Below are positions 24,934 through 61,964 of a DNA stretch of 61,971 bases, one piece after another; position 1 is the stretch's first letter; each line of letters begins with the position of its first letter. Source of the DNA: Eubacteriales bacterium (GTDB lineage Bacteria; Bacillota; Clostridia; Tissierellales; GPF-1); the NCBI GenBank assembly GCA_030625815.1, contig DAOUQF010000022.1:1-61971 (forward strand), in the 5' to 3' direction. A program made the position numbers and the translations under genes. The notes below the pieces were generated by a model. The model did not search any database. It saw only the letters and a list, made by a program, of their open reading frames with translations, and was not told where the DNA came from.

Positions 24934-26853
24934 TCATTCCAATCCCGTACTATTATGATACGCTTCTATCAAACGCGTTTTAGCCAAGTTAGTAATCTTA
25001 GTATGGTCTATAGCCATATCAAATTCCTTCTTACAAACATATTTAATAACATCCGCCAAATTTGATGCATTGAGGTTAATAGCTCTTTCATTACTAATAT
25101 CACTAATTCGCATATTTGGCACCATTTTGCCTTTTTCCAACGGATCATTTGCCTCTTCATAACAATTCACAGTAACTACACTATGATCTTTTTTTGTTAC
25201 CCACCCAGCTCCAGCCTCCAAAACTGTGTTCCAGCTACTATTGAATTCTTGACTACATAAATAGATAACGAATGGTTTAACTTCCGAGTAAGAGTCAACA
25301 AAGAAATCTCTTAAATAATCATACACCTCGTGTGGATAAGGAATCCTTGCTGCTCGATGCTCTGATGATGTATATAGAATTTTTGCAGGTTGAACACCAG
25401 ATTCTAACAATAATTCCTCAATTATATCAGCAAACAATTTGTCCGAACTAGTATGACTTATTAGAACCATTTTTTTCGATTCATCAACCTCAGACTTCAA
25501 TCCATATAATCTTTTCATTTCGGTCTGAATCCCACTTTTAACCTCAGGTGTGAATGCGGTTTCTACTCCCACAGTCTGCCCTAGATTTTCGACAAAACCT
25601 CTCATATCCCTAGTGAACTCTCGTTCTTTTGCCTTTTTCTTTTGGATTTGCTTAACATCTTTCTTGTTGTCCTTGTATCTTTTCAACCGATTTTTCCTGT
25701 TACCGGCTTCATTCAATTCACGCTTTAGAACTTCCATGGCTTTAATATAACGCAGATCAGCACTCTGATAGCCTTGTCTATTACTAAGTGCCATATCGCG
25801 AAGTTCGGTTTCTTCAAATAAATCTATATGGAATTGTCCTGCAATATACATTTCAACCATCCGGTTACTGGTGATTTGATCCATTACATTATACATTCCC
25901 AATTTCCTTTTTGAGAAAATTGAAATGAAATTTTCTGAGAAATCAAGCGCTTTATTAGACGCTTGACGTTGCTTAAAAGTACCAATCCACCCTTTTATTT
26001 CGAGAACAAAATTAGCTACTTCACCATCTTTTTTAGTCAATTCTAACGGAATACGAATTGGTGATTGAATTACTTTAAAATCTGCTTTTTTGTCAATTGG
26101 AACAGCTGGAATAGTAGCGAAATCGCCATAATACTTCTTCAACTGAGCATCTACAGAGTCAGAATCTACTACTTCATCTTCATCTAAAAAAACTTTTAAG
26201 GTATCCATACCCTCAAGAAGATTTTCAACAGGATCTTCTAATTCAACAACTTCATCGTACCATGCAATATGAATTGTAAAGTCATCAATTTGTGATGGGA
26301 ACACTTTAGATATATTTTTCTTAAATGTCTTAAGCATGCGAGGAATATTAGCAACTGGTGAAACCATTTCAATCCTGGTTCCATGACCTTTTTGATTATA
26401 TTCAAACGATATCTCTTCGTCTGGAATTGCTGGTAACAGTTTACTCTCAGGAACACTGGTGCTCATCTCACATCCAGCTTTTTCTAACGATCCTTTTTTT
26501 ATCGACATAACTCTAATAACATTCGATATCGATAGAGCTGCGAGCTTTCCAATTCCTTTTCGCCCCATTTTATAACGACCTTTTTCAGTCTTATCCTCAT
26601 CAGAAGTTTTTCGAGACTCCCGACCAACATCTAAATACTTATTATTAAAGTCATTAACATCCATACCAATTCCATCATCTTCGACAACAATAATACCTTC
26701 TTGGATGGATATAAATACATTCTCAGCGTCAGCATCATGGGCATTTGCAATTAATTCACTTAGAACAAAATAAATGTTCGTGTACAAACTTGGGCCTAAC
26801 AATTCTAAAACTCGTGGCTGTAGATTCATTTTATATATCTTATGTTCAGGCAT
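24934..26853 (-). CDS. GHKL (Hsp90/MORC-like) ATPase fused to a C-terminal TIR domain
   Basis: A 639-residue protein starting at ATG 26853, with GGAGGGG 3-5 nt upstream. The N-terminal ATPase shows the Bergerat signature: LIANAHDADAE (E33, N37, D40), DDGIGMD (59-65) and GRKGIGKLAALS (97-108). The middle has an S5-like part and a basic coiled coil (about 360-415). From residue 463 a TIR domain begins, VLISHTSSDKLFADII; the putative catalytic glutamate is E546 in FNSSWNTVLEAG. TIR domains of this kind usually degrade NAD or make signals in phage defence. The gene is AT-rich, lies next to a methyltransferase gene and interrupts the usual late-module order, indicating cargo. Trigger and mechanism are inferred. 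Confidence 0.8.
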   Translation of the reverse strand: MPEHKIYKMNLQPRVLELLGPSLYTNIYFVLSELIANAHDADAENVFISIQEGIIVVEDDGIGMDVNDFNNKYLDVGRESRKTSDEDKTEKGRYKMGRKGIGKLAALSISNVIRVMSIKKGSLEKAGCEMSTSVPESKLLPAIPDEEISFEYNQKGHGTRIEMVSPVANIPRMLKTFKKNISKVFPSQIDDFTIHIAWYDEVVELEDPVENLLEGMDTLKVFLDEDEVVDSDSVDAQLKKYYGDFATIPAVPIDKKADFKVIQSPIRIPLELTKKDGEVANFVLEIKGWIGTFKQRQASNKALDFSENFISIFSKRKLGMYNVMDQITSNRMVEMYIAGQFHIDLFEETELRDMALSNRQGYQSADLRYIKAMEVLKRELNEAGNRKNRLKRYKDNKKDVKQIQKKKAKEREFTRDMRGFVENLGQTVGVETAFTPEVKSGIQTEMKRLYGLKSEVDESKKMVLISHTSSDKLFADIIEELLLESGVQPAKILYTSSEHRAARIPYPHEVYDYLRDFFVDSYSEVKPFVIYLCSQEFNSSWNTVLEAGAGWVTKKDHSVVTVNCYEEANDPLEKGKMVPNMRISDISNERAINLNASNLADVIKYVCKKEFDMAIDHTKITNLAKTRLIEAYHNSTGLE

Positions 26854-44902: not shown

Positions 44903-46826
44903 AATGATAAAACGAATTCACGCCATCTTTTTAAACGGTTGCAAACAATATAAATGGCTATGCATCGGATGGAGCTTCTTGTTGCTAAGCGCACTTCCAC
45001 CCCGCATGTTTATGCTACGCACCCTTGGTTCCCAAGGATTTGGCGAAGAGATGATCCGTTACGCGGAGAACATTCAATTCTTTGAAAATCCATTGTTGAT
45101 CATGTATTTACTGATCGCACCATTGATCAGCGTGTTGATTATCTTCAGCCACTTGCACCAGAAGAACCGAGTCGACTTGATGCATCAATTGCCGGTAACG
45201 CGTTTGGACCTTATGCTCGGACGAGGACTAATTGCTTTTTGTTCCGTTTGGGTTCCGTTTATTGTTACAGGAATCATCGTTTATCTTCTGCAAGGATTGA
45301 CGCCAGAATTTCAAAGTGTACTCGAATGGAAGTCTCTTTTGCAATGGTTAATCCATGGCAGCATCTTTCTCTTCTTGCATACGATGATCACCATTTTTAT
45401 AGGTTTTCTAACTGGCATGATCGCCACCCACGGCTTGTTTGCTGTGATTGCCTATCTATTTCCTTTAGGGGTCTATGTTATGGTTCTGGGAAATCTCAGC
45501 CTGCTTGTCCAAAGCTACTTTTTCTCGTTCAATCTCACAGATCGTTTCTCCTGGTGGCTGCCCATTGTCCGCGTCAGTCTGGCGGACGGCTTCCCCTTGA
45601 TTCAGGATTTTCTCTATCTTGTCGCAGGAATCTTATTCTTCATCGGCGCTTATCAGCTTTATCGCGTGCGGCCTTTGGAAACGGCAGGCAATGTCATTGC
45701 ATTCGCCAAACTCAATCGGATCTTTAAATACGGAATGGGATTTAGTTTTCTCTTGGTGCTGGGGCCATTCTTCTACCTGCTCGCAAACGAAATCCCATCT
45801 TGGCTGTATATCGGTTATGCCTTGGGCGGACTATTCGGTTTCTTCCTGGCGGAAGTGCTGATTCAGAAAAGTTTTCATGTCTGGAGCAAATGGAAAAGCT
45901 TTCTTGCTTTTGTCTGCATCTCCAGCATACTGATCATCGGAATGCGAATGGATCTATTGGGGATCCAAAAATGGCAGCCGCAGGCTGACTCCATTCAAGA
46001 ATTAGCGGTGACAAGCCATAATCAATACTACTCCAGCAATGATGACGATGAGTATGAAACAATCAGCGCAAGCATTAAGGAGAAAACCCTGGAACTGCAA
46101 AAGGCAATGATTCAGGCAAACCTTCCCCTTGAAACAGCGAATGCGGAAACCATTTATTGCTCCTATCGCTTGGAGAATCATGCGGTTAGCAAACGGGTTT
46201 ATCTCTTAAATGACAATTTCTTAAATTCAACCTATCGGTCGTACTTGGCAGATCCGGAAATACTGAATCTAAACTTCCCCATTCTAGCCATGGATTCCGA
46301 ACGAATCGCAACCCTTCAATTGTCATCAAGTCTTTTGCCGGGACGAGTGATTTCCCTAACCAGTCCAAGCGAAATTCGACTGTTGATTGAAGCGATTCAA
46401 TCCGATATTTTGCATTTACAAGGCGGCACTTATTGGAACTATCTGCCGAAAGATGAACGCAATACCGAATTCGCCTATGTGCAATTGCTTGATCAAGACG
46501 GAAAGCGCCTCATAAACATGGCGATTCGCAATCAATTTGAAGAAACGACCGCTCAACTCACCGCCATGGGTCGAATGGATCGACTGATTTTAACCCTGGA
46601 TGATGTGGAGAGCGTTCACCTAACTTCCACAACCAACCGCAACGACGATCAAGTGATTGATGATCCAAAAGTCATTCAAGAACTGCTGACCTTTATCAAT
46701 CAGACCGGAGACCGATACTGGAAAAATACTGACTATGAACTCACAATCTATTTCACGGACCGCACTTTGAACAATCTCTATTATCAGATTGACACAAATG
46801 AACTGCCAAGAACCTTAAGATACTAA
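44895..46826 (+). CDS. ABC transporter permease (YtrC/D-like, with large extracytoplasmic domain)
   Basis: A 643-residue protein overlapping the ATPase gene by 8 bp. About six to eight transmembrane helices are concentrated in the first 370 residues (for example at about 22-38, 70-88, 110-130, 155-178, 185-210, 235-252, 280-300). The last 270 residues form a soluble domain with DUF6449-like character. Likely an exporter for peptides, antibiotics or lipids under GntR control; substrate unknown. Confidence 0.85.
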   Translation: MTEMIKRIHAIFLNGCKQYKWLCIGWSFLLLSALPPRMFMLRTLGSQGFGEEMIRYAENIQFFENPLLIMYLLIAPLISVLIIFSHLHQKNRVDLMHQLPVTRLDLMLGRGLIAFCSVWVPFIVTGIIVYLLQGLTPEFQSVLEWKSLLQWLIHGSIFLFLHTMITIFIGFLTGMIATHGLFAVIAYLFPLGVYVMVLGNLSLLVQSYFFSFNLTDRFSWWLPIVRVSLADGFPLIQDFLYLVAGILFFIGAYQLYRVRPLETAGNVIAFAKLNRIFKYGMGFSFLLVLGPFFYLLANEIPSWLYIGYALGGLFGFFLAEVLIQKSFHVWSKWKSFLAFVCISSILIIGMRMDLLGIQKWQPQADSIQELAVTSHNQYYSSNDDDEYETISASIKEKTLELQKAMIQANLPLETANAETIYCSYRLENHAVSKRVYLLNDNFLNSTYRSYLADPEILNLNFPILAMDSERIATLQLSSSLLPGRVISLTSPSEIRLLIEAIQSDILHLQGGTYWNYLPKDERNTEFAYVQLLDQDGKRLINMAIRNQFEETTAQLTAMGRMDRLILTLDDVESVHLTSTTNRNDDQVIDDPKVIQELLTFINQTGDRYWKNTDYELTIYFTDRTLNNLYYQIDTNELPRTLRY

Positions 46827-46830
46827 AAAA

Positions 46831-46868
46831 TAAGCGTCCTATCACAAATTCTGTGATAGGACGCTTTT
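46831..46868. terminator. Bidirectional terminator between the permease and pyc
   Basis: AAGCGTCCTATCACA and TGTGATAGGACGCTT form a 15-bp stem with a short loop, followed by T on the plus strand and by a TTATTTTTT-type run on the minus strand. Confidence 0.85.
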
Positions 46869-46878
46869 CTTATAATTC

Positions 46879-49800
46879 TCACTCTTCTTCAAAAAAACCT
46901 TCAGCCAATTCCATCAGCAATTCGCCGCTTTCCACCTGCTGATCCTTGTTAATCAAGATGCGACTGACAGCGCCGTCAAACGGTGCCACCATTTGGGTTT
47001 CCATCTTCATGGCTTCCACTATCAGCAGCGGTTGATTCTCCGAAACCGAATCGCCTTCCTTGACCAGGATCTCGATGATCTTGCCCGGGATGCCCGCTCC
47101 GATGTGGAACGGGTTTTCAGGATCCGCCTTCTCCAATTTCGCCTTTGTCGACAAGGTAACTGCATTTTTGTCTTCCACACCGACTTCACGACGGAAGCCA
47201 TCCACTTCAAAGACAACCTTGCGCACGCCTTCTTCATCGATCTTTCCGATACCGACAAGCTTCACCATATGGCTCTTGCCCTTGGCCATATCAATTCTAG
47301 CCTCTTCGCCTTCGCGAAGGCCATGGAAGAACACATCGCTTTCCATCCGGATAAAATCACCGTACTCTTCACTGAATTTCAAGAAATCTTCAAACACCTT
47401 CGGATAAAGCGCCGCGCTTAAAAGATCAGTCATGCCAAACTCGCGGTTGTATCGCACCGCCAAGTCCGCACGGATCGCGTCAAAATCAACGGGCTCCAAC
47501 AATTGACCCGGACGTACTGTAATGGGCTCTTCTCCCTTTAGAACGATTCGTTGCAATTCCTTGTCGAATCCCCCCATTGGTTGACCCATCATTCCCTTAA
47601 AGAAGTCAACGACTGAATCTGGAAAGGCAAGCTCTTCCCCTTTTTCATAGATGTTTTGAGCTTCCAAATCATTTTGCACCATAAAGATCGCCATATCGCC
47701 AACCGCTTTGGAAGACGGGGTCACTTTAATGATATCGCCAAACAACTTGTTTGCTTCGATATATTTTCCCTTTACCTCTGCAAATCGATGACCCAAGCCG
47801 AAGCTTTCCACCTGAGGCTTCAGGTTCGAATACTGTCCGCCAGGAATCTCATACTTGTAGATTTCCGCCGTTCCCGATTTCAGGTCGGACTCAAATCCCG
47901 CATAGACATCCCGCACGGCAACCCAGTAATCGGAAATCTGTTGCATTTCTTCCGGTACAATCCCCGTATCGCGCTCGGTATTTTCCAAAGCCGCCACGAT
48001 GGAGTTGAGGGCCGGTTGGCTCGTCAACCCGCTCATGCCATTAACCGCACTGTCCACGATGTCAACGCCCGCCATGGCTGCCATCAAAACGGTCGCCACG
48101 CCATTGCCTGATGTATCATGGGTATGCAGATGAATCGGAATCGAAATTTCCTGCTTCAATGCCTTCACCAATTGATAAGCGGCAGCCGGTTTCAGCAAGG
48201 CTGACATATCTTTAATGCCGAGGATATGCGCGCCTGTCGCTTCAATCTCTTTCGCCATGCGAATATAATAAGCCAAATCATACTTGGTCTTGTCCGGATT
48301 CAAAATGTCTCCGGTATAGCATATGCAGACTTCCGCAATTTTACCCGCCTCCAAGACGGATTCCGTCGCAATCTTCATGCCCTCCAACCAGTTGAGGGAA
48401 TCAAATATTCGGAAAACATCGATTCCATGATCAGATGCTTCCTTCACAAATTCCCGAATCACATTGTCCGGATAGTTTTTGTATCCAACTGCATTGGATC
48501 CGCGAAGCAACATCTGAAACATCACGTTCGGCATCCGCTTGCGCAGTTCATCAAGGCGTTCCCAAGGCGATTCCTTCAAGAATCGATAGCTGACATCATA
48601 GGTCGCGCCACCCCACATCTCAACCGAAAACAAGTCTCGGCCATAGGTAGACGTTGCGCGGGCAATCTTAATCATATCCCGGCTTCTGACCCGTGTCGCC
48701 ATCAAAGACTGATGCGCGTCCCTAAAGGTTGTATCCGTCAAAAGCAATTTCTTTTGATCCTTAATCCAATTCACAACGGCTTCCGGACCACCATTGTCCA
48801 AGAGCTGCTTGGTACCCGACAGCTCATGGGGATTGTCTACCTCCGGAATGACCGGCACATCAAATGCCGGTTTCTTTCCGTGGGTTTCGTTGACAATCTT
48901 TTCCGCCAAGAATTGCAGGAGCTTGCGCTCGTCGCTTTTCTTCTCTTGGAAATCAAAAAGACTGGGATTGCCGTCAATAAAGCCCGTATCGCATTTTCCC
49001 GCAATAAAACGAGGATGATTCAATACATTCAACAAGAATCCCTGATTGGTCTTCACGCCCTCAATTCGACTCTCCCTGATGGCACGAATCGCCTTGCGGC
49101 GCGTATCGTCAAAGGTTCTTGAATAAGCGGAGATCTTCACCAATAAACTATCGTAATACGGCGTAATCACCGATCCGGCAAATCCATTGCCGCCATCGAG
49201 ACGAATACCGAAACCGGACCCCGTTCGATATACATCCAACTGGCCCGTATCCGGAGCAAAGGAATTCTGAGGATCTTCCGTTGTCACACGACATTGAATG
49301 GCGAATCCGCGGGGTTGAATCGCCGCTTGATTCGCAATGCCAATCTCTGGAGAAGCCAGTTCATACCCCTGGGCAACCAGGAGCTGGCTTTGCACCAGGT
49401 CAATTCCCGTCACCAACTCCGTTACGGTATGTTCCACCTGAATTCTCGGGTTCATTTCAATAAAAAAATGATGTCCGGCCGCGTCGACCAAAAACTCGAC
49501 GGTACCGGCATTGCGATAGTTCACGGCACCCGCAATACGAAGCGCATCCGCACAGATCTCCTCCCGCTGCTCATCCGTCAAAGCCAAGGAAGGCGTAAAC
49601 TCCACCAATTTTTGATGGCGCCGTTGAATGGAGCAGTCCCGCTCATGAAGATGGACTAGATTGCCGTGCTCATCTCCCAACACCTGAACCTCGATATGCT
49701 TCGGACGTTCCACATACTTTTCAATAAACATCGAATCATTGCCAAAGGCTTTTGCCGCCTCGCTGCGCGCCGAATGAAATTCCTGCAGCAGATTCTCTTC

Positions 49801-56486: not shown

Positions 56487-58406
56487 ATGAAAGTACTAAA
56501 CATCTCACAATTGAGCAAATCATTTGTTGGAGAAACCATCTTCGAAAATCTGTCTTTTTCCGTCAATCACCGAGAAAAAGTGGGACTTGTCGGATCCAAC
56601 GGCACGGGAAAAACAACCCTCTTTCGAATTCTGACCAATCAGATCTCGGCTGATTCAGGGTCTGTCATGATCCCCAAAACCATTCGAGTTGGCTATCTCA
56701 AGCAAAATACACATATCACCAGTGAAAATTCCGTCTACGACGAAGTCAGAGAAGTCTTCGCCCCCATCTTTCAGATGGAAGAAGATATGCGCGAACTGGA
56801 GCATGAAATCGCAGCGCAATCCGCGCATCCCGATCTCCTTCCCCGCTTGATGGAACGCTATGCCCATTTGCAAGACACCTACACCAAGGCCAATGGCTAC
56901 GCCTGCGAATCAGAACTTAGAGGCGCCCTCCGGGGACTCGGCTTCAGCGAGGAAGAATTTTCCAAACCCGTCAATCAATTGAGCGGCGGTCAAAAATCCA
57001 GGGTAATCCTGGCAAAACTCCTCTTGGAAAAAGCGGATCTTTTGCTGATGGATGAGCCTACCAACCACTTGGATCTCGCAGCCATCGAATGGTTGGAAAA
57101 ATATATCCGCGATTATCCGGGAGCTGTTCTCGTGATCTCCCATGATCGATATTTTCTGGATGCAACGGTGCAGCGCATCCTTCACCTCCACCATCAACAG
57201 CTGGATTCCTTTCCCGGCAATTACTCCGACTTCATCGTACATCGACAAAAGCTCTACGCCGAACTGGAAAAGCGGTATATGATTCAACAAAAGGAAATCA
57301 AGCGTCAAGAGGTGATGATCCGCGACTTTATGGATCGCAAAAGCGCCCGATCAATCCGCCAAGCAAAAAGTCGGCAGAAGATGTTGGATCGCATGAAAAA
57401 GATGGATACTCCCTCCAGCGAGCAAGACAATATGAAGCTTAGATTCTCGCCTCGCATCAAAAGCGGCAATGAAGTGTTGCAAATTTCAGACTTAAGCAAG
57501 TCTTACGGAGATCAAGAAATCTTTCGCGATCTTAATTTTTCTCTCTATCGCCAAGAACGAATCGGACTGATCGGTCCCAATGGCGTGGGTAAAACCACCT
57601 TGTTTCGCGTATTGCTGGGCGAAATTCTCCAATCCGCCGGCGAGGTCACCTTCGGCCATCACGTCCATGCGGCTCATTTCGATCAAGAGCATACCAATTT
57701 AAATCCAAATAAAACCATCGTTGATGAAATTTGGGATGAGAATCCAACCTTTGATCACTATCGCATTCGATCCCTATTGGCTCGATTTTTATTCTTTGGC
57801 GACGACTTGTTCAAGGAAATCGACGCCTTAAGCGGAGGAGAAAAAGCGCGCCTGGCTCTTTTAAAGCTGATGCTTTCGGAAGCCAATTTCCTTTTGATGG
57901 ATGAACCGACCAACCACTTGGATCTCGAGTCCAAGGAAGCGCTGGAGAATGCCCTGATGCATTATGACGGCACCCTCTTCGTCATTTCCCATGACCGATA
58001 TTTTCTGAATCGTGTCGCAACGCGAATCTTCGATTTGACCGACCATGGAATCAAATCTTATATGGGCAATTACAATTATTATCTGGAAAAGAAAAACGAG
58101 ATCGTCGATGCATCGGTGGATCCGATACCAACCAATAAGACTGCCTTGAAGGCAGAACGGAAAAGAAAAAAGGACGAAGAAAAGAAAAAGCGTCAACAAA
58201 GGAAAAATCTGCAAGAACTGGAAAATGCAATCACGGAAAAGGAAGCCGCCATCGAAGACTATCATTCACAGCTTTGCTTGGAAGAAGTCTATACGGATCC
58301 CGAGCGCAGTCGCTTGATCCATCAGTCTTTGGAAGAAACTGAAGCGACCCTCAACGAGGCTTTGGAAGCCTGGACAGAGTTGATAGAAATTCTGGAAGAA
58401 GAGTAA
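56487..58406 (+). CDS. ABC-F family ATPase (translation factor, YdiF-like)
   Basis: A 639-residue protein with two ABC domains and no membrane part. First: Walker A GSNGTGKTTLFRI (about 36), LSGGQKSRV (about 160), LLMDEPTNHLDL (about 183). Second: GPNGVGKTTLFRV (about 360), LSGGEKARL, LLMDEPTNHLDL. The P-site-tRNA-interaction linker lies at about 240-310 (KLYAELEKRYMIQQKEIKRQE), and a coiled-coil C-terminus at 545-635. Such proteins act on stalled ribosomes; some give antibiotic resistance, but this subtype is usually housekeeping. Confidence 0.93.
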   Translation: MKVLNISQLSKSFVGETIFENLSFSVNHREKVGLVGSNGTGKTTLFRILTNQISADSGSVMIPKTIRVGYLKQNTHITSENSVYDEVREVFAPIFQMEEDMRELEHEIAAQSAHPDLLPRLMERYAHLQDTYTKANGYACESELRGALRGLGFSEEEFSKPVNQLSGGQKSRVILAKLLLEKADLLLMDEPTNHLDLAAIEWLEKYIRDYPGAVLVISHDRYFLDATVQRILHLHHQQLDSFPGNYSDFIVHRQKLYAELEKRYMIQQKEIKRQEVMIRDFMDRKSARSIRQAKSRQKMLDRMKKMDTPSSEQDNMKLRFSPRIKSGNEVLQISDLSKSYGDQEIFRDLNFSLYRQERIGLIGPNGVGKTTLFRVLLGEILQSAGEVTFGHHVHAAHFDQEHTNLNPNKTIVDEIWDENPTFDHYRIRSLLARFLFFGDDLFKEIDALSGGEKARLALLKLMLSEANFLLMDEPTNHLDLESKEALENALMHYDGTLFVISHDRYFLNRVATRIFDLTDHGIKSYMGNYNYYLEKKNEIVDASVDPIPTNKTALKAERKRKKDEEKKKRQQRKNLQELENAITEKEAAIEDYHSQLCLEEVYTDPERSRLIHQSLEETEATLNEALEAWTELIEILEEE

Positions 58407-58445
58407 CTTTCCTCATAATCCTCCAATATTAGGAAACAAGTCAAG

Positions 58446-58476
58446 AAAAAGACATGCAAAGGCATGTCTTTTTTTG
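58446..58476 (+). terminator. Terminator of the ABC-F gene
   Basis: GACATGC (58451-58457) and GCATGTC (58462-58468) with flanking A and T runs make a strong hairpin followed by eight T. Confidence 0.88.
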
Positions 58477-58477
58477 T

Positions 58478-58581
58478 TTATCCACAGGTCTGATGGGTAG
58501 GAAACGGGAATATTCAGAGAATTCTAAAACTTATCCACGTTATCCACAGAGTTATCCCCTAATTTTCCGAACTTTCCCACA
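58478..58581 (+). promoter_or_regulatory. Cluster of DnaA boxes
   Basis: Perfect DnaA boxes TTATCCACA at 58478-58486 and 58540-58548, one-mismatch TTATCCACG at 58531-58539 and looser TTATCCCCT (58552) and TTTCCCACA (58573) all share one orientation within 104 bp between ABC-F and tsaD. Confidence 0.75.
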
Positions 58582-58603
58582 GTGCTGTAAGAATTATGCA
58601 ATT

Positions 58604-59626
58604 TCAAACATGATTGGCTAATTTTAGGGATGGAATGGCATTTAAATCCAATTCATCTCGTTTCCCCGCCATAAATTGATAATAGCCCGCACAGCCGATC
58701 ATGGCTGCATTATCCGTACATAACTCGATGGGCGGGAAATAAAAGTCCAGTCCGTCCGCTTCGGCCCGGGACTGAAACGCCCTTCTCAAATGGCGATTGG
58801 CTGAAACGCCGCCTGCCATTACGATGGTTTCATATCCCAATTCCTTGGCTGCCCGAAAGGCTTTTTCCACAAGGACTTCAATGACTGCAGCTTGAAAACT
58901 TGCCGCCACATCCGCTTCGTTGACCACTTCTCCCTTTTGTCGATGCCGATGGAGATAATTCAACACCGCCGACTTCAATCCGCTGAAGGAAAAGTCGTAG
59001 GAATCCGGCTCCAAGAAGATTCTCGGAAAATCAATGGCCGCAGGATCACCCTGGTCCGATAGAAAATCAATCTTGGGTCCCCCGGGATAGCCAAGACCAA
59101 TCGCTCGGGCAACCTTGTCAAAGGCCTCCCCAGCCGCGTCATCTCGGGTTTGTCCCAGGATCCGATACTGCCCGTAGTTCTGCATTTCCACCAAGTGGGT
59201 ATGCCCTCCCGATACCACCAGACAAAGAAACGGCGGTTTCAGCTCCGGATGAGCAATAAAATTTGCATAGATATGCCCTTCAATATGATTCACCCCAACA
59301 AGGGGTTTATCCATCGCGTAGCTGATTGCCTTCGCGCTGGTCAGCCCCACCAAAAGGGCGCCCACCAAACCGGGACCATAGGTCACAGCCAAATGATCGC
59401 ATTCTTCCAAGGTGACTTCCGCCTCTTCTAGGGCTTCTCGAATCACGCCGTTGATCTTTTCCACATGCATGCGGCTTGCCACCTCCGGCACAACCCCGCC
59501 GAAGGCTTGATGAATGGCAATCTGCGAATAGACGACATTGGATAAAACCCGCCGTCCGTTCTCCAAAACCGCAACGCTTGTTTCATCGCAGGATGTTTCG
59601 ATTGCCAAAGTACGTATCGTTTCCAT
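58604..59626 (-). CDS. tsaD: tRNA N6-threonylcarbamoyladenosine synthase subunit TsaD
   Basis: A 340-residue ASKHA-fold protein. MetalsIte [10 protein letters not shown] near 111 and the N-terminal [16 protein letters not shown], then [12 protein letters not shown] near 137, and the late [13 protein letters not shown]. It transfers threonylcarbamoyl to A37 of ANN-reading tRNAs with TsaB and TsaE, which are encoded upstream in the same cluster. Confidence 0.97.
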
Positions 59627-59638
59627 TCTCTTTCCTCC

Positions 59639-60343
59639 TTAAAACGTATACCATGAGAGAATGGTAAATCCAACACTCATGCCGATATAGGCGAACCAAG
59701 TCGCCAACCCGATGAAAATCGCAAAGCGCTTTTCAACGCCATAGACGATGCGAAGCCCGCGAATCACCAATACCTGATACCAAATTACAAAGAGATTAAT
59801 TTCTCGAAGCAGCAGATAAAGAAAACTTGTCTGCATAGTCGCCTGCATGGTTGCGGGCAGCAAAGCCCCCAAATGAAAGGCTAGTCCCGTTCCAAACAAT
59901 CCCGCCGTCAGAAGCGTGATCATTTTCGAAAAGGCAACGGGCAGATACGCCCATGCCACGATGGAAAAAGCTTGTTTCAATTCCCCTTCGCCGTCCAGCG
60001 CATTGGCCAATCCCCCGCACATCCAGGATTTAAACAGCCAGATCATCAAAATTCCAAAGCCCTGCATAACGATATCCGTATAATAACGCGCCTGCAGCGA
60101 GGCTTCCGATGCATCCACGCCAGTTTGCACAGCAGTCTTTTGATAGAACTCAATATACTTCCCCAGAGAAGAAAATCCCGTTGCAACCTGAGGAAAAATC
60201 ACGCCCAGCAGCGGAAGACCGATCATCACCACCAAAAGTGGGAAAAGCCAATTCGGCTTCGACTTGAATTGCAAGAACAGCTGATCCGGATCCCACATCA
60301 GCCATTTCATCTTTTGGATCGTTGCTTCAAACCGTTCTTTCAT
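59639..60343 (-). CDS. Yip1 domain membrane protein
   Basis: A 234-residue protein starting at ATG 60343 (GGAGGCGTGGG). About five transmembrane helices in a Yip1-like pattern (PNWLFPLLVVMIGLPLLGV, later FGILMIWLFKSWMCGGLANAL and ILSWYTF). Function unknown; it sits between rimI and tsaD and is presumably co-transcribed. Confidence 0.75.
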   Translation of the reverse strand: MKERFEATIQKMKWLMWDPDQLFLQFKSKPNWLFPLLVVMIGLPLLGVIFPQVATGFSSLGKYIEFYQKTAVQTGVDASEASLQARYYTDIVMQGFGILMIWLFKSWMCGGLANALDGEGELKQAFSIVAWAYLPVAFSKMITLLTAGLFGTGLAFHLGALLPATMQATMQTSFLYLLLREINLFVIWYQVLVIRGLRIVYGVEKRFAIFIGLATWFAYIGMSVGFTILSWYTF

Positions 60344-60782
60344 CCCACGCCTCCTTATAGAGCCACATGATATACGCATCTTCACAGCCTTCGTAATACT
60401 TCGGTCGCGTTCCTTCATTGATAAATCCCAGGGTCTCATACAAATGAATGGCACGGACATTGGACACCCGCACTTCCAAGGTCATACTGGTCAGCCCTCG
60501 CCCAAAGGCAAGATTGGCAAGATACGTCATCAGCTCGCGCCCGTACCCCTTACCCTGATGTTTGGAGTCAATGGCGACATTGGTGATATGACCCTCATCC
60601 AAAATCCAAATCAATCCCATATACCCGATCACTTGATCATCCAATTCAGCGACATAATAGGTCCTGGTTCCCTGCGCCATTTCTTCTTCAAAAATTGCCT
60701 GTGTCCATGGCTCGCGAAAATTTTGGTTTTCAATTTCGACTACTGCCGGGATGTCCCCTTGCTGCATCTCTCTAATTTTCAT
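60327..60782 (-). CDS. rimI: Ribosomal protein alanine N-acetyltransferase RimI
   Basis: A 151-residue GNAT acetyltransferase from ATG 60782 (AAAGGCGG). The acetyl-CoA loop is HQGKGYGRELMTYL near 80, preceded by ITNVAIDSKHQ, and followed by LEVRVSNVRAIHLYETLGF. It acetylates the N-terminus of S18 and possibly other proteins. It overlaps tsaB by 11 bp and the Yip1 gene by 17 bp. Confidence 0.93.
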   Translation of the reverse strand: MKIREMQQGDIPAVVEIENQNFREPWTQAIFEEEMAQGTRTYYVAELDDQVIGYMGLIWILDEGHITNVAIDSKHQGKGYGRELMTYLANLAFGRGLTSMTLEVRVSNVRAIHLYETLGFINEGTRPKYYEGCEDAYIMWLYKEAWDERTV

Positions 60783-61482
60783 CCTTTTTCCGCCTTTCTT
60801 CCAATTCCCGTTCTGCTTGCGTCTTTGCCAAATAGCAGGGCACCAATTGATCCGGATCGGCCAATTCACCGCTTTCCAATCGTTCCAAAGCTTGCCACGC
60901 AATGGTTCTCGCCGTCGGTGTCGCATATCGACCCGAGAGGAAATGCGGGGTTGGCTCCGCTGCTTTAAACGCTTCTCGATACCGGACCGCACCCTCGCCC
61001 ATCAAATAAACCGGTTCTGATTGCTCGGAAATCCATGCGATCAAATCCTCAACTTCCATGGCTTGCTGCGGCAAAACCACTCGCTCCCCGCGTCCGTCCC
61101 GTTGAATCCCTGCAATATACACCCGATCGCGCCTGGCATCCACCAGGGCTAACAGTATGCCTTTCTTTTCTTTTGCCTGATCGAGCATGGCCATCAGGGT
61201 TTCAACCCCGTATACCGGCTTGTTCAAGGCAAATCCAAAGGCCTTGACGGCGGCAATTCCAATCCGTAGCCCCGTGTAAGAACCCGGTCCCATGGAGGCG
61301 GCAAAGCCGTCGATCTCTGAAATGGATACACCCGCCTGCTTCAGCATCTGATCGACCATGGGCATTAAGCTCTGAGAATGGGTGAATTGCGTCTGCACCG
61401 TAAATTCCCCCAATAGTTTTTCTTCCGACACCAACGCTACACTCGCTGTTTTTGATGATGTTTCAACTGCCAATAGCTTCAT
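60772..61482 (-). CDS. tsaB: tRNA t6A biosynthesis protein TsaB
   Basis: A 236-residue ASKHA-fold protein from ATG 61482 (AAAGGGGGC). KLLAVETSSKTASVALV opens it; GSYTGLRIGIAAVKAFGFAL near 70 is the family signature. It is the scaffold for TsaD and TsaE. ATG overlaps the tsaE stop codon. Confidence 0.95.
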   Translation of the reverse strand: MKLLAVETSSKTASVALVSEEKLLGEFTVQTQFTHSQSLMPMVDQMLKQAGVSISEIDGFAASMGPGSYTGLRIGIAAVKAFGFALNKPVYGVETLMAMLDQAKEKKGILLALVDARRDRVYIAGIQRDGRGERVVLPQQAMEVEDLIAWISEQSEPVYLMGEGAVRYREAFKAAEPTPHFLSGRYATPTARTIAWQALERLESGELADPDQLVPCYLAKTQAERELEERRKKDEN

Positions 61483-61964
61483 CTGTCTGCCCCCTTTGCA
61501 GAAAAAAACTCGCAAATTTGTTGAAGCAACGCCTCTGCAACAGGTCCAAAGGCTTCCACCTCGACGATTCGCTCTTCTTCATTCTCCGTTTGAAAGAAGC
61601 ACATCTCCATATGGTCTTTCGGTAAAATCCCGCGAATCATCTCCGCCCATTCCATCACAACCAAAGCCTCTTCCTCCCAATACTCGTCAAAGCCCTGAGC
61701 CAAAAAAGCCTCTTCATCTCCCAAGCGATATACATCAAAATGATAAAAGGGCATTCGCCCCTGATATTCTTGCAAGAGCGTAAATGTCGGACTCGTTACC
61801 ATGTCTTCCACCCCAAACCCTTTTGCCAATGCCTTTGAAAAAGTCGTCTTTCCCGCGCCCAGATCTCCGTCCAAGCAAATTAAAAATCGATGATCGATTT
61901 GTTTTCCGATAAAATGTCCTAAATCCGCTGTTTCTTGCAGATTGGACAAGATCCATTTCTTCAT
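61479..61964 (-). CDS. tsaE: tRNA t6A biosynthesis ATPase TsaE
   Basis: A 161-residue P-loop ATPase. Walker A GDLGAGKTTFSKAL near residue 33, SPTFTLLQEY near 58, HFDVYRL near 74, ALVVMEWAEMI near 99. It energises the TsaB-TsaD complex. First gene in the visible part of the tsaE-tsaB-rimI-yip1-tsaD cluster; the promoter is outside the window. Confidence 0.96.
   Translation of the reverse strand: MKKWILSNLQETADLGHFIGKQIDHRFLICLDGDLGAGKTTFSKALAKGFGVEDMVTSPTFTLLQEYQGRMPFYHFDVYRLGDEEAFLAQGFDEYWEEEALVVMEWAEMIRGILPKDHMEMCFFQTENEEERIVEVEAFGPVAEALLQQICEFFSAKGADR

What the first reader, a model, noticed from the sequence alone, without database searches (positions are those of the whole stretch)
58478..58581. 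DnaA-box cluster outside any obvious origin
Two perfect and one near-perfect TTATCCACA boxes plus two weaker ones, all in the same orientation within 104 bp, lie between ABC-F and tsaD. Chance occurrence is unlikely. It could be a DnaA titration or reactivation site, or a DnaA-controlled region for tsaD or neighbouring genes.
Basis: partly seen in the sequence, partly recalled or inferred. Interest (0 to 1): 0.6.

Follow-up and report, generated by a model that had tools for sequence, protein, structure and literature searches.

The report
Conserved DnaA-binding cluster beside tsaD
A short stretch between two genes carries several binding sites for DnaA, the protein that starts chromosome copying; the same gene border is known to bind DnaA in Bacillus subtilis, and similar clusters with similar spacing recur there in many related bacteria, so it is probably an old brake on chromosome copying.

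Summary
Two perfect DnaA boxes, one with a single mismatch and two weaker ones, all in one orientation, fill 104 bp of the 197-bp spacer between the facing 3' ends of an ABC-F gene and tsaD; shuffled sequence almost never gives this. B. subtilis has a known high-affinity DnaA site at the same gene border ("downstream of gcp; downstream of ydiF", PMC4447404), so this is a new member of a known kind. What I did not find in print is its breadth: 3 or more boxes lie within 300 nt of the tsaD stop in 76 of 113 genomes of the order and 41 of 90 sampled across the phylum, against 1 of 3,277 background windows. Boxes mostly share one orientation, with preferred steps (9, 12, 21, 43, 52 bp) near whole helical turns; the window's steps are 53, 9, 12, 21. 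When tsaD and the ABC-F gene lie apart the cluster can stay with either. Distance from oriC varies (0.12-0.73 of an arm). Most likely it is a scaffold that holds DnaA-ATP and restrains initiation; control of tsaD transcription is unlikely, since both genes end here. Binding and function in this organism are untested.

The parts
58407..58603 (.). intergenic spacer between convergent ABC-F and tsaD genes (197 bp, 37% G+C)
   Evidence: ORFs; G+C; 165/197 and 170/197 identical to two congeners
58446..58475 (.). terminator-like hairpin AAAAAGACATGC-AAAG-GCATGTCTTTTTTT, symmetric, so possibly bidirectional
   Evidence: read directly; the scanner reported no terminator (probably because the T run itself pairs with the A run)
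58478..58486 (+). DnaA box TTATCCACA (perfect)
   Evidence: identical in both congeners
58531..58539 (+). DnaA box TTATCCACG (1 mismatch), abuts the next box: the 9-bp tandem of the conserved layout
58540..58548 (+). DnaA box TTATCCACA (perfect here, 1 mismatch in each congener)
58552..58560 (+). weak box TTATCCCCT, 12 bp after the previous box
   Evidence: sequence; TTATCCCC kept in both congeners
58573..58581 (+). weak box TTTCCCACA, 21 bp after the previous box
   Evidence: sequence; identical in both congeners
58505..58530 (.). conserved non-box stretch between the boxes (CGGGAATATTCAGAGAATTCTAAAAC), role unknown
   Evidence: alignment (one difference, in one congener)
56487..58406 (+). 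ABC-F ATPase gene (position of B. subtilis ydiF), ends at the spacer
   Evidence: NF000355, 447 bits, cut-off 380
58604..59626 (-). tsaD (gcp), ends at the spacer
   Evidence: TIGR03723, 451 bits, cut-off 296

Best explanation
The spacer is a DnaA-box cluster outside the origin, the counterpart in position of the B. subtilis gcp/ydiF cluster. DnaA binds the boxes, which point the same way and are spaced near whole helical turns, so that several DnaA-ATP molecules can assemble cooperatively on one face of the DNA. The assembly withholds DnaA from oriC, and its capacity doubles when the fork passes, so it restrains early re-initiation. Shown here: the boxes, their orientation and spacing, their conservation at this gene border. 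Shown by others in B. subtilis: DnaA binds the counterpart site, with preference for DnaA-ATP at low concentration, and removing six clusters together makes initiation early. Inferred: that DnaA binds here, and that the effect is withholding rather than a change of DnaA's nucleotide.
For: Same gene border as the B. subtilis site listed as 'downstream of gcp; downstream of ydiF' (10 predicted sites, apparent Kd 0.15 uM for ATP-DnaA and 0.33 for ADP-DnaA; 16-fold more DNA recovered with ATP-DnaA at 55 nM; PMC4447404 passages). Deletion of six clusters gives early initiation (review passages). The genome's own DnaA carries GGRDHTTVIHA near its C-terminus, and its dnaA region holds 8 perfect TTATCCACA boxes. 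Conservation: 83 of 152 loci with 3 or more boxes, about 0.05 expected from shuffles; 34 of 83 groups less than 70% alike in TsaD; 76 of 113 in the order, 41 of 90 in the phylum sample; 1 of 3,277 background windows. Orientation 149:19 and phase coherence 0.346 at 10.5 bp, reached by 0 of 500 random placements. The window's own steps, 53, 9, 12 and 21 bp, match the preferred ones. Spacer 84-86% identical in congeners, fourfold sites 49-56%.
Against: No binding or phenotype data for this organism. 28 of 113 order genomes, 42 of 90 phylum-sample genomes and 41 of 83 thinned groups have no box within 300 nt of the tsaD stop, so the element is dispensable or movable. In this genus it is a reduced version: fewer strong boxes than in many of the order, and only one perfect box in each congener. 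In the complete congener it lies at 0.66 of the replication arm, not near oriC, whereas by recall a cluster placed near the terminus suppressed early initiation poorly in B. subtilis. One 2017 review plays down the role of the B. subtilis clusters in initiation (passage).
Confidence: 0.68

Rival explanations
1. A DnaA-regulated transcription site for tsaD or neighbouring genes.
For: In B. subtilis several DnaA sites do regulate genes (sda, ywlC and others; passage). In 40 of 93 loci where the next ORF of 90 aa or more runs in the direction of tsaD a cluster is present, so it could lie near that gene's promoter. Two weak promoter-like matches were found in 58300-58800, 0.7 expected.
Against: In the window both genes end here and a hairpin separates them. 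In three genomes the cluster sits at the ABC-F 3' end and not at tsaD. In six loci with 0.8-3.2 kb between tsaD and the ABC-F gene it stays near tsaD. So it need not keep either partner.
Confidence: 0.08
2. A datA-like or DARS-like site: the ordered DnaA array changes the nucleotide state of DnaA (hydrolysis or exchange) rather than merely holding it.
For: Biased orientation and helical phasing of boxes and conserved non-box sequence in the genus suggest a defined complex, more than a passive sink needs. The B. subtilis counterpart discriminates strongly between ATP- and ADP-DnaA at low concentration.
Against: B. subtilis is described as lacking datA and DARS loci, and regulators of its DnaA ATP/ADP balance are unknown. 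Cooperative holding of DnaA-ATP would also favour phased boxes. No cofactor site was tested.
Confidence: 0.14
3. A DnaA roadblock or terminator between convergent genes, which keeps transcription of either side from running into the other.
For: Convergent setting in 59 of 152 loci, 43 of them with a cluster; boxes mostly in one orientation relative to tsaD. Orientation-dependent termination by DnaA in E. coli is recalled, not looked up.
Against: A hairpin terminator already lies in the window's spacer. Clusters also occur where the next ORF is co-directional (40 of 93).
Confidence: 0.05
4. A secondary or relict replication origin.
For: Multiple DnaA boxes within about 100 bp.
Against: No dnaA-dnaN here; the most AT-rich 30 nt reach 73% against 87% in this genome's dnaA-dnaN spacer; GC skew keeps its sign across the place, although it shrinks to -0.04 over the ABC-F gene; in the complete congener dnaA is 1.15 Mb away. 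Unwinding elements such as DnaA-trios were not searched for.
Confidence: 0.02
5. Boxes are kept by inertia or chance and have no function in this organism.
For: Reduced set of boxes in this genus; absence from many genomes.
Against: Chance is very unlikely by shuffles and background; spacer conservation exceeds that of fourfold sites by about 30 percentage points.
Confidence: 0.03

Closest known systems
B. subtilis DnaA-box cluster between gcp (tsaD) and ydiF (ABC-F)
   Same: Same position between the 3' ends of the same two genes; several DnaA boxes.
   Different: 10 predicted sites in a 300-bp window there, 5 counted by eye here. At 0.63 Mb from the origin there; 1.15 Mb of a 3.49-Mb chromosome in the complete congener. 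Binding measured there, only predicted here. The B. subtilis sequence itself was not available, so box-by-box spacing was not compared.
Other B. subtilis high-affinity sites outside the dnaA-dnaN region (ywlC, sda/yqeG, trmE, ywcI, yydA)
   Same: Multi-box DnaA sites (Table 1 of PMC4447404); clusters outside oriC are held to buffer free DnaA.
   Different: Those lie upstream of at least one gene and several regulate transcription; this one lies between 3' ends.
E. coli datA, DARS1, DARS2
   Same: DnaA-box clusters outside oriC that set initiation timing.
   Different: E. coli sites act on DnaA's nucleotide, with IHF and Fis described at them; nothing of the kind is shown here.
oriC of Bacillota (clusters around dnaA)
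   Same: Same box sequence.
   Different: No dnaA, no comparably AT-rich stretch, no change of skew sign.

Membership tests
tsaD/ABC-F (gcp/ydiF) DnaA-box cluster | lies between the 3' ends of tsaD and an ABC-F gene | tested here: met
tsaD/ABC-F (gcp/ydiF) DnaA-box cluster | several DnaA boxes, more than chance | tested here: met
tsaD/ABC-F (gcp/ydiF) DnaA-box cluster | conserved in relatives at the same border | tested here: met
tsaD/ABC-F (gcp/ydiF) DnaA-box cluster | box orientation and preferred spacing found in relatives | tested here: met
   one orientation; steps 53, 9, 12, 21 bp against preferred 9, 12, 21, 52; but two of the boxes are weak, and the box that in many relatives lies 42-43 bp before the 9-bp tandem is missing. 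Comparison with B. subtilis itself not possible
tsaD/ABC-F (gcp/ydiF) DnaA-box cluster | bound by DnaA, ATP form preferred at low concentration | not testable with these tools
   known for B. subtilis
DnaA-box clusters that restrain initiation (B. subtilis) | removal (with the others) makes initiation early | not testable with these tools
   review passages
DnaA-box clusters that restrain initiation (B. subtilis) | near the origin | tested here: inconclusive
   0.66 of the arm in the complete congener, 0.12-0.73 in 19 genomes with a cluster; the sda site at 2.62 Mb is also far from the origin in B. subtilis (Table 1), so nearness is hardly defining
oriC | next to dnaA/dnaN, AT-rich unwinding region, skew change | tested here: not met
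datA / DARS | changes DnaA nucleotide state, with IHF or Fis | not testable with these tools
   biochemical property

The most novel reading that the evidence does not exclude
The tsaD/ABC-F cluster is an ancestral, dedicated control element of Bacillota: a directional, helically phased array on which DnaA-ATP forms a defined complex that sets initiation timing (a functional counterpart of datA or DARS, which B. subtilis is said to lack), kept at one gene border in much of the phylum whatever its distance from oriC, and backed by further recurrent arrays at comF-hpf and cwlD.
Probability: 0.3. Interest if true: 0.75.

Novelty: new member of a known kind. Interest (0 to 1): 0.5.

Why it matters
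B. subtilis lacks Hda, SeqA, datA and DARS, and whether it has regulators of the DnaA ATP/ADP balance is unknown (review passage); the reports on clusters outside oriC that I saw concern B. subtilis. Evidence that one of them recurs with a similar box layout at the same gene border in much of the phylum argues that it is selected for, and gives a precise sequence design (orientation, 9/12/21-bp steps) to mutate. It also separates the element from its neighbours, since it can stay with either gene.

Tried and rejected
Promoter and terminator scan: two weak promoter-like matches, no terminator reported although the hairpin is plain in the sequence. Rfam at gathering threshold over 58300-58750: nothing. 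Cryptic origin, transcription control and chance were considered and set aside for the reasons given. The strict reading 'anchored to tsaD' was rejected. Okumura et al. 2012, the primary paper on the six-cluster deletion, is not held; I know it from recall and from review passages. The statement that I saw no report of the wide conservation rests on paper searches (listings, plus passages of PMC4447404, PMC5295017, PMC13220808 and PMC7561715); supplements were not looked at.

Changed on checking: G301 was taken out of the phylum count because it was fetched through a pattern hit (41 of 90; 41 of 91).

Full report
What is there. The spacer 58407-58603 separates two genes that end towards each other: an ABC-F ATPase (+, 56487-58406; NF000355) and tsaD (-, 58604-59626; TIGR03723), with tsaB and tsaE upstream of tsaD and rex beyond the ABC-F gene. 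A 12-bp hairpin with a T run (58446-58475, read) is followed by five DnaA-box-like 9-mers on the + strand: TTATCCACA 58478, TTATCCACG 58531, TTATCCACA 58540, TTATCCCCT 58552 and TTTCCCACA 58573, i.e. at steps of 53, 9, 12 and 21 bp. One of 5000 shuffles of the spacer reaches 3 boxes with at most 1 mismatch, and none of 200 shuffles of the window has a same-strand triple within 104 bp.

The genome. G000 (3.22 Mb, 58 contigs) has 48 perfect boxes against 24 for the reversed pattern. Two or more within 150 bp occur at five places: the dnaA region (C43, 8 boxes from 45843 to 48018, the last inside dnaN), this spacer (C28), purA-dnaB (C45), comF-hpf (C50) and beside a DEAD-box helicase gene (C58). 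dnaA encodes the GGRDHTTV motif, which I recall as the box-recognition signature; a C. difficile paper describes the box-contacting residues as conserved among Firmicutes and E. coli (passages of PMC7561715). In the complete congener G002, dnaA is at 125 and tsaD at 1,149,705 of 3,490,293, i.e. 0.66 of the right arm.

Conservation in the genus. The spacer is identical at 165 and 170 of 197 positions in the two congeners, and the five boxes at 42 of 45 in each (in one search the range of the fourth box was set one base too far right). Fourfold-degenerate sites of tsaD and the ABC-F gene are identical at 77/147 and 127/226 (G001) and 73/143 and 115/233 (G002). The spacer, including sequence between the boxes (48 and 46 of 59), therefore appears to be under selection. 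Not all boxes are kept perfect: each congener has one perfect box.

Conservation beyond. Of 116 tsaD genes found in 120 genomes of the order, 113 spacers entered the final count; two were cut by contig ends and one genome's locus was set apart because its copy came through a pattern search. 76 of 113 have 3 or more boxes (at most 1 mismatch) within 300 nt of the tsaD stop, 80 of 113 have such a cluster within 1.48 kb, and 28 have no box within 300 nt. With a convergent ABC-F gene in view (1.5-4 kb of sequence, depending on the locus) the cluster is present in 72 of 85; without, in 4 of 28. Of 197 tsaD-bearing genomes in the phylum sample 90 were counted: the 30 best TsaD matches that the search gave as loci plus 60 picked by hand for spread over families, all before their spacers were seen, less duplicates, with two order members already in hand. 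41 of 90 have a cluster within 300 nt, 47 of 90 within 1.48 kb, 42 have no box within 300 nt; outside the window's own order it is 39 of 87. In the first 152 loci, 83 had 3 or more boxes where shuffles predict about 0.05. In 3,277 windows of 300 nt elsewhere in the long loci only 1 had 3. After thinning to TsaD sequences less than 70% alike, 34 of 83 groups have the cluster and 41 have no box. Where the next ORF is co-directional and starts within 60 bp of tsaD, 1 of 22 has it: there is little room.

Layout. In clusters most boxes point against tsaD (149 to 19 after thinning; 480 to 108 in all 120 clusters of 206 loci, five of which came by other routes). Distances between same-strand boxes prefer 9 (60 of 83 loci), 12 (43), 21 (43), 52 (25) and 43 (19). 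At a 10.5-bp period the phase coherence is 0.346 after thinning, against a maximum of 0.268 in 500 random placements; the best period in the scan was 11.0 after thinning and about 10.6 before, so 'near one helical turn' is as far as the data go. A typical well-kept member of the order reads, in ABC-F orientation, three or four boxes at steps of 11, 9 and 12, then 42-43 bp to a tandem TTTTCCACATTATCCACA, with an inverted box about 36 bp further on in many (29 hand-picked loci shown). The window's version keeps the tandem and one box of the first group.

Unbiased check. The tandem TTWTCCACATTWTCCACA occurs 51 times in 40 of 120 order genomes (reversed control: 1); by comparison of places, 18 of 51 lie within 700 bp of tsaD. 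The perfect tandem occurs 93 times in 76 of 199 phylum genomes (control: 0); 30 of 93 lie within 500 bp of a listed tsaD (both comparisons by eye, and the second is a lower bound because the tsaD list was cut). The rest lie elsewhere, so the tandem is not peculiar to tsaD.

Independence from neighbours. In G080 and G088 the cluster lies 3' of an ABC-F gene away from tsaD, and tsaD has none; in G301, with about 3 kb between the two genes, it lies at the ABC-F end. In six other loci with 0.8-3.2 kb between the genes it lies near tsaD. I placed tsaD relative to dnaA in 28 genomes; of the 34 seven were left out (one has the genes on different contigs, six had no spacer in the count), and G002 was added. 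In 28 of 28 tsaD runs with the replication fork, so box orientation relative to the fork cannot be separated from orientation relative to tsaD; the 19 with a cluster lie at 0.12-0.73 of the arm, median 0.35.

What is known. In B. subtilis the interval 'downstream of gcp; downstream of ydiF' is among the eight high-affinity DnaA regions in vitro (10 predicted sites, Kd 0.15 uM ATP-DnaA, 0.33 ADP-DnaA; 16-fold more recovered with ATP-DnaA at 55 nM; passages and Table 1 of PMC4447404). That gcp is tsaD and ydiF an ABC-F gene is recalled. Deletion of six clusters causes early initiation (passages of PMC5295017 and PMC13220808); that gcp/ydiF is one of the six is recalled. PMC13220808 states that B. 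subtilis lacks datA and DARS and that regulators of its DnaA ATP/ADP balance are unknown. In eight answered paper searches I saw no report of this cluster in clostridia or of its conserved layout; subscription papers are mostly outside that library.

Verdict. A DnaA-box cluster far beyond chance and apparently constrained, in the same position as a known one. Holding DnaA-ATP is the best-supported mechanism. Whether the phased layout builds a defined complex with its own activity is open and directly testable.

Noticed in passing
G000:C50:8517-8807 (L003 6517-6808); L201, L226, L232, L234, L241 and others: A second recurrent cluster lies between a comF-family gene and hpf (ribosome hibernation factor): comF neighbours in 7 and hpf neighbours in 6 of 43 tandem loci inspected; in both congeners three perfect boxes lie between the same two genes.
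   Followed up: partly
L195, L196, L203-L205, L211, L215-L219: In other families of the order a tandem-box site lies just 3' of cwlD (spore amidase; TIGR02883 for L195), in several with rpsI (named by eye) beyond: 11 of the 15 loci without a tsaD, ABC-F, hpf or comF match.
   Followed up: partly
G000:C45:6828-6940 (L002): Cluster between purA and the replicative helicase gene dnaB; in that spacer G002 keeps two perfect boxes and G001 one.
   Followed up: partly
G000:C58:87198-87237 (L004): Two perfect boxes 31 bp apart beside a DEAD-box RNA helicase gene (best model CshA, below its cut-off); the same 31-bp pair beside the same gene in both congeners.
   Followed up: partly
window 58604-61964 and literature: Two of the known B. 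subtilis DnaA sites adjoin t6A genes: gcp (tsaD) and ywlC (recalled to be the TsaC/Sua5 homologue). Whether DnaA clusters prefer t6A genes was not tested.
   Followed up: no
window 25331-25339: A lone perfect DnaA box on the - strand, without a cluster.
   Followed up: no
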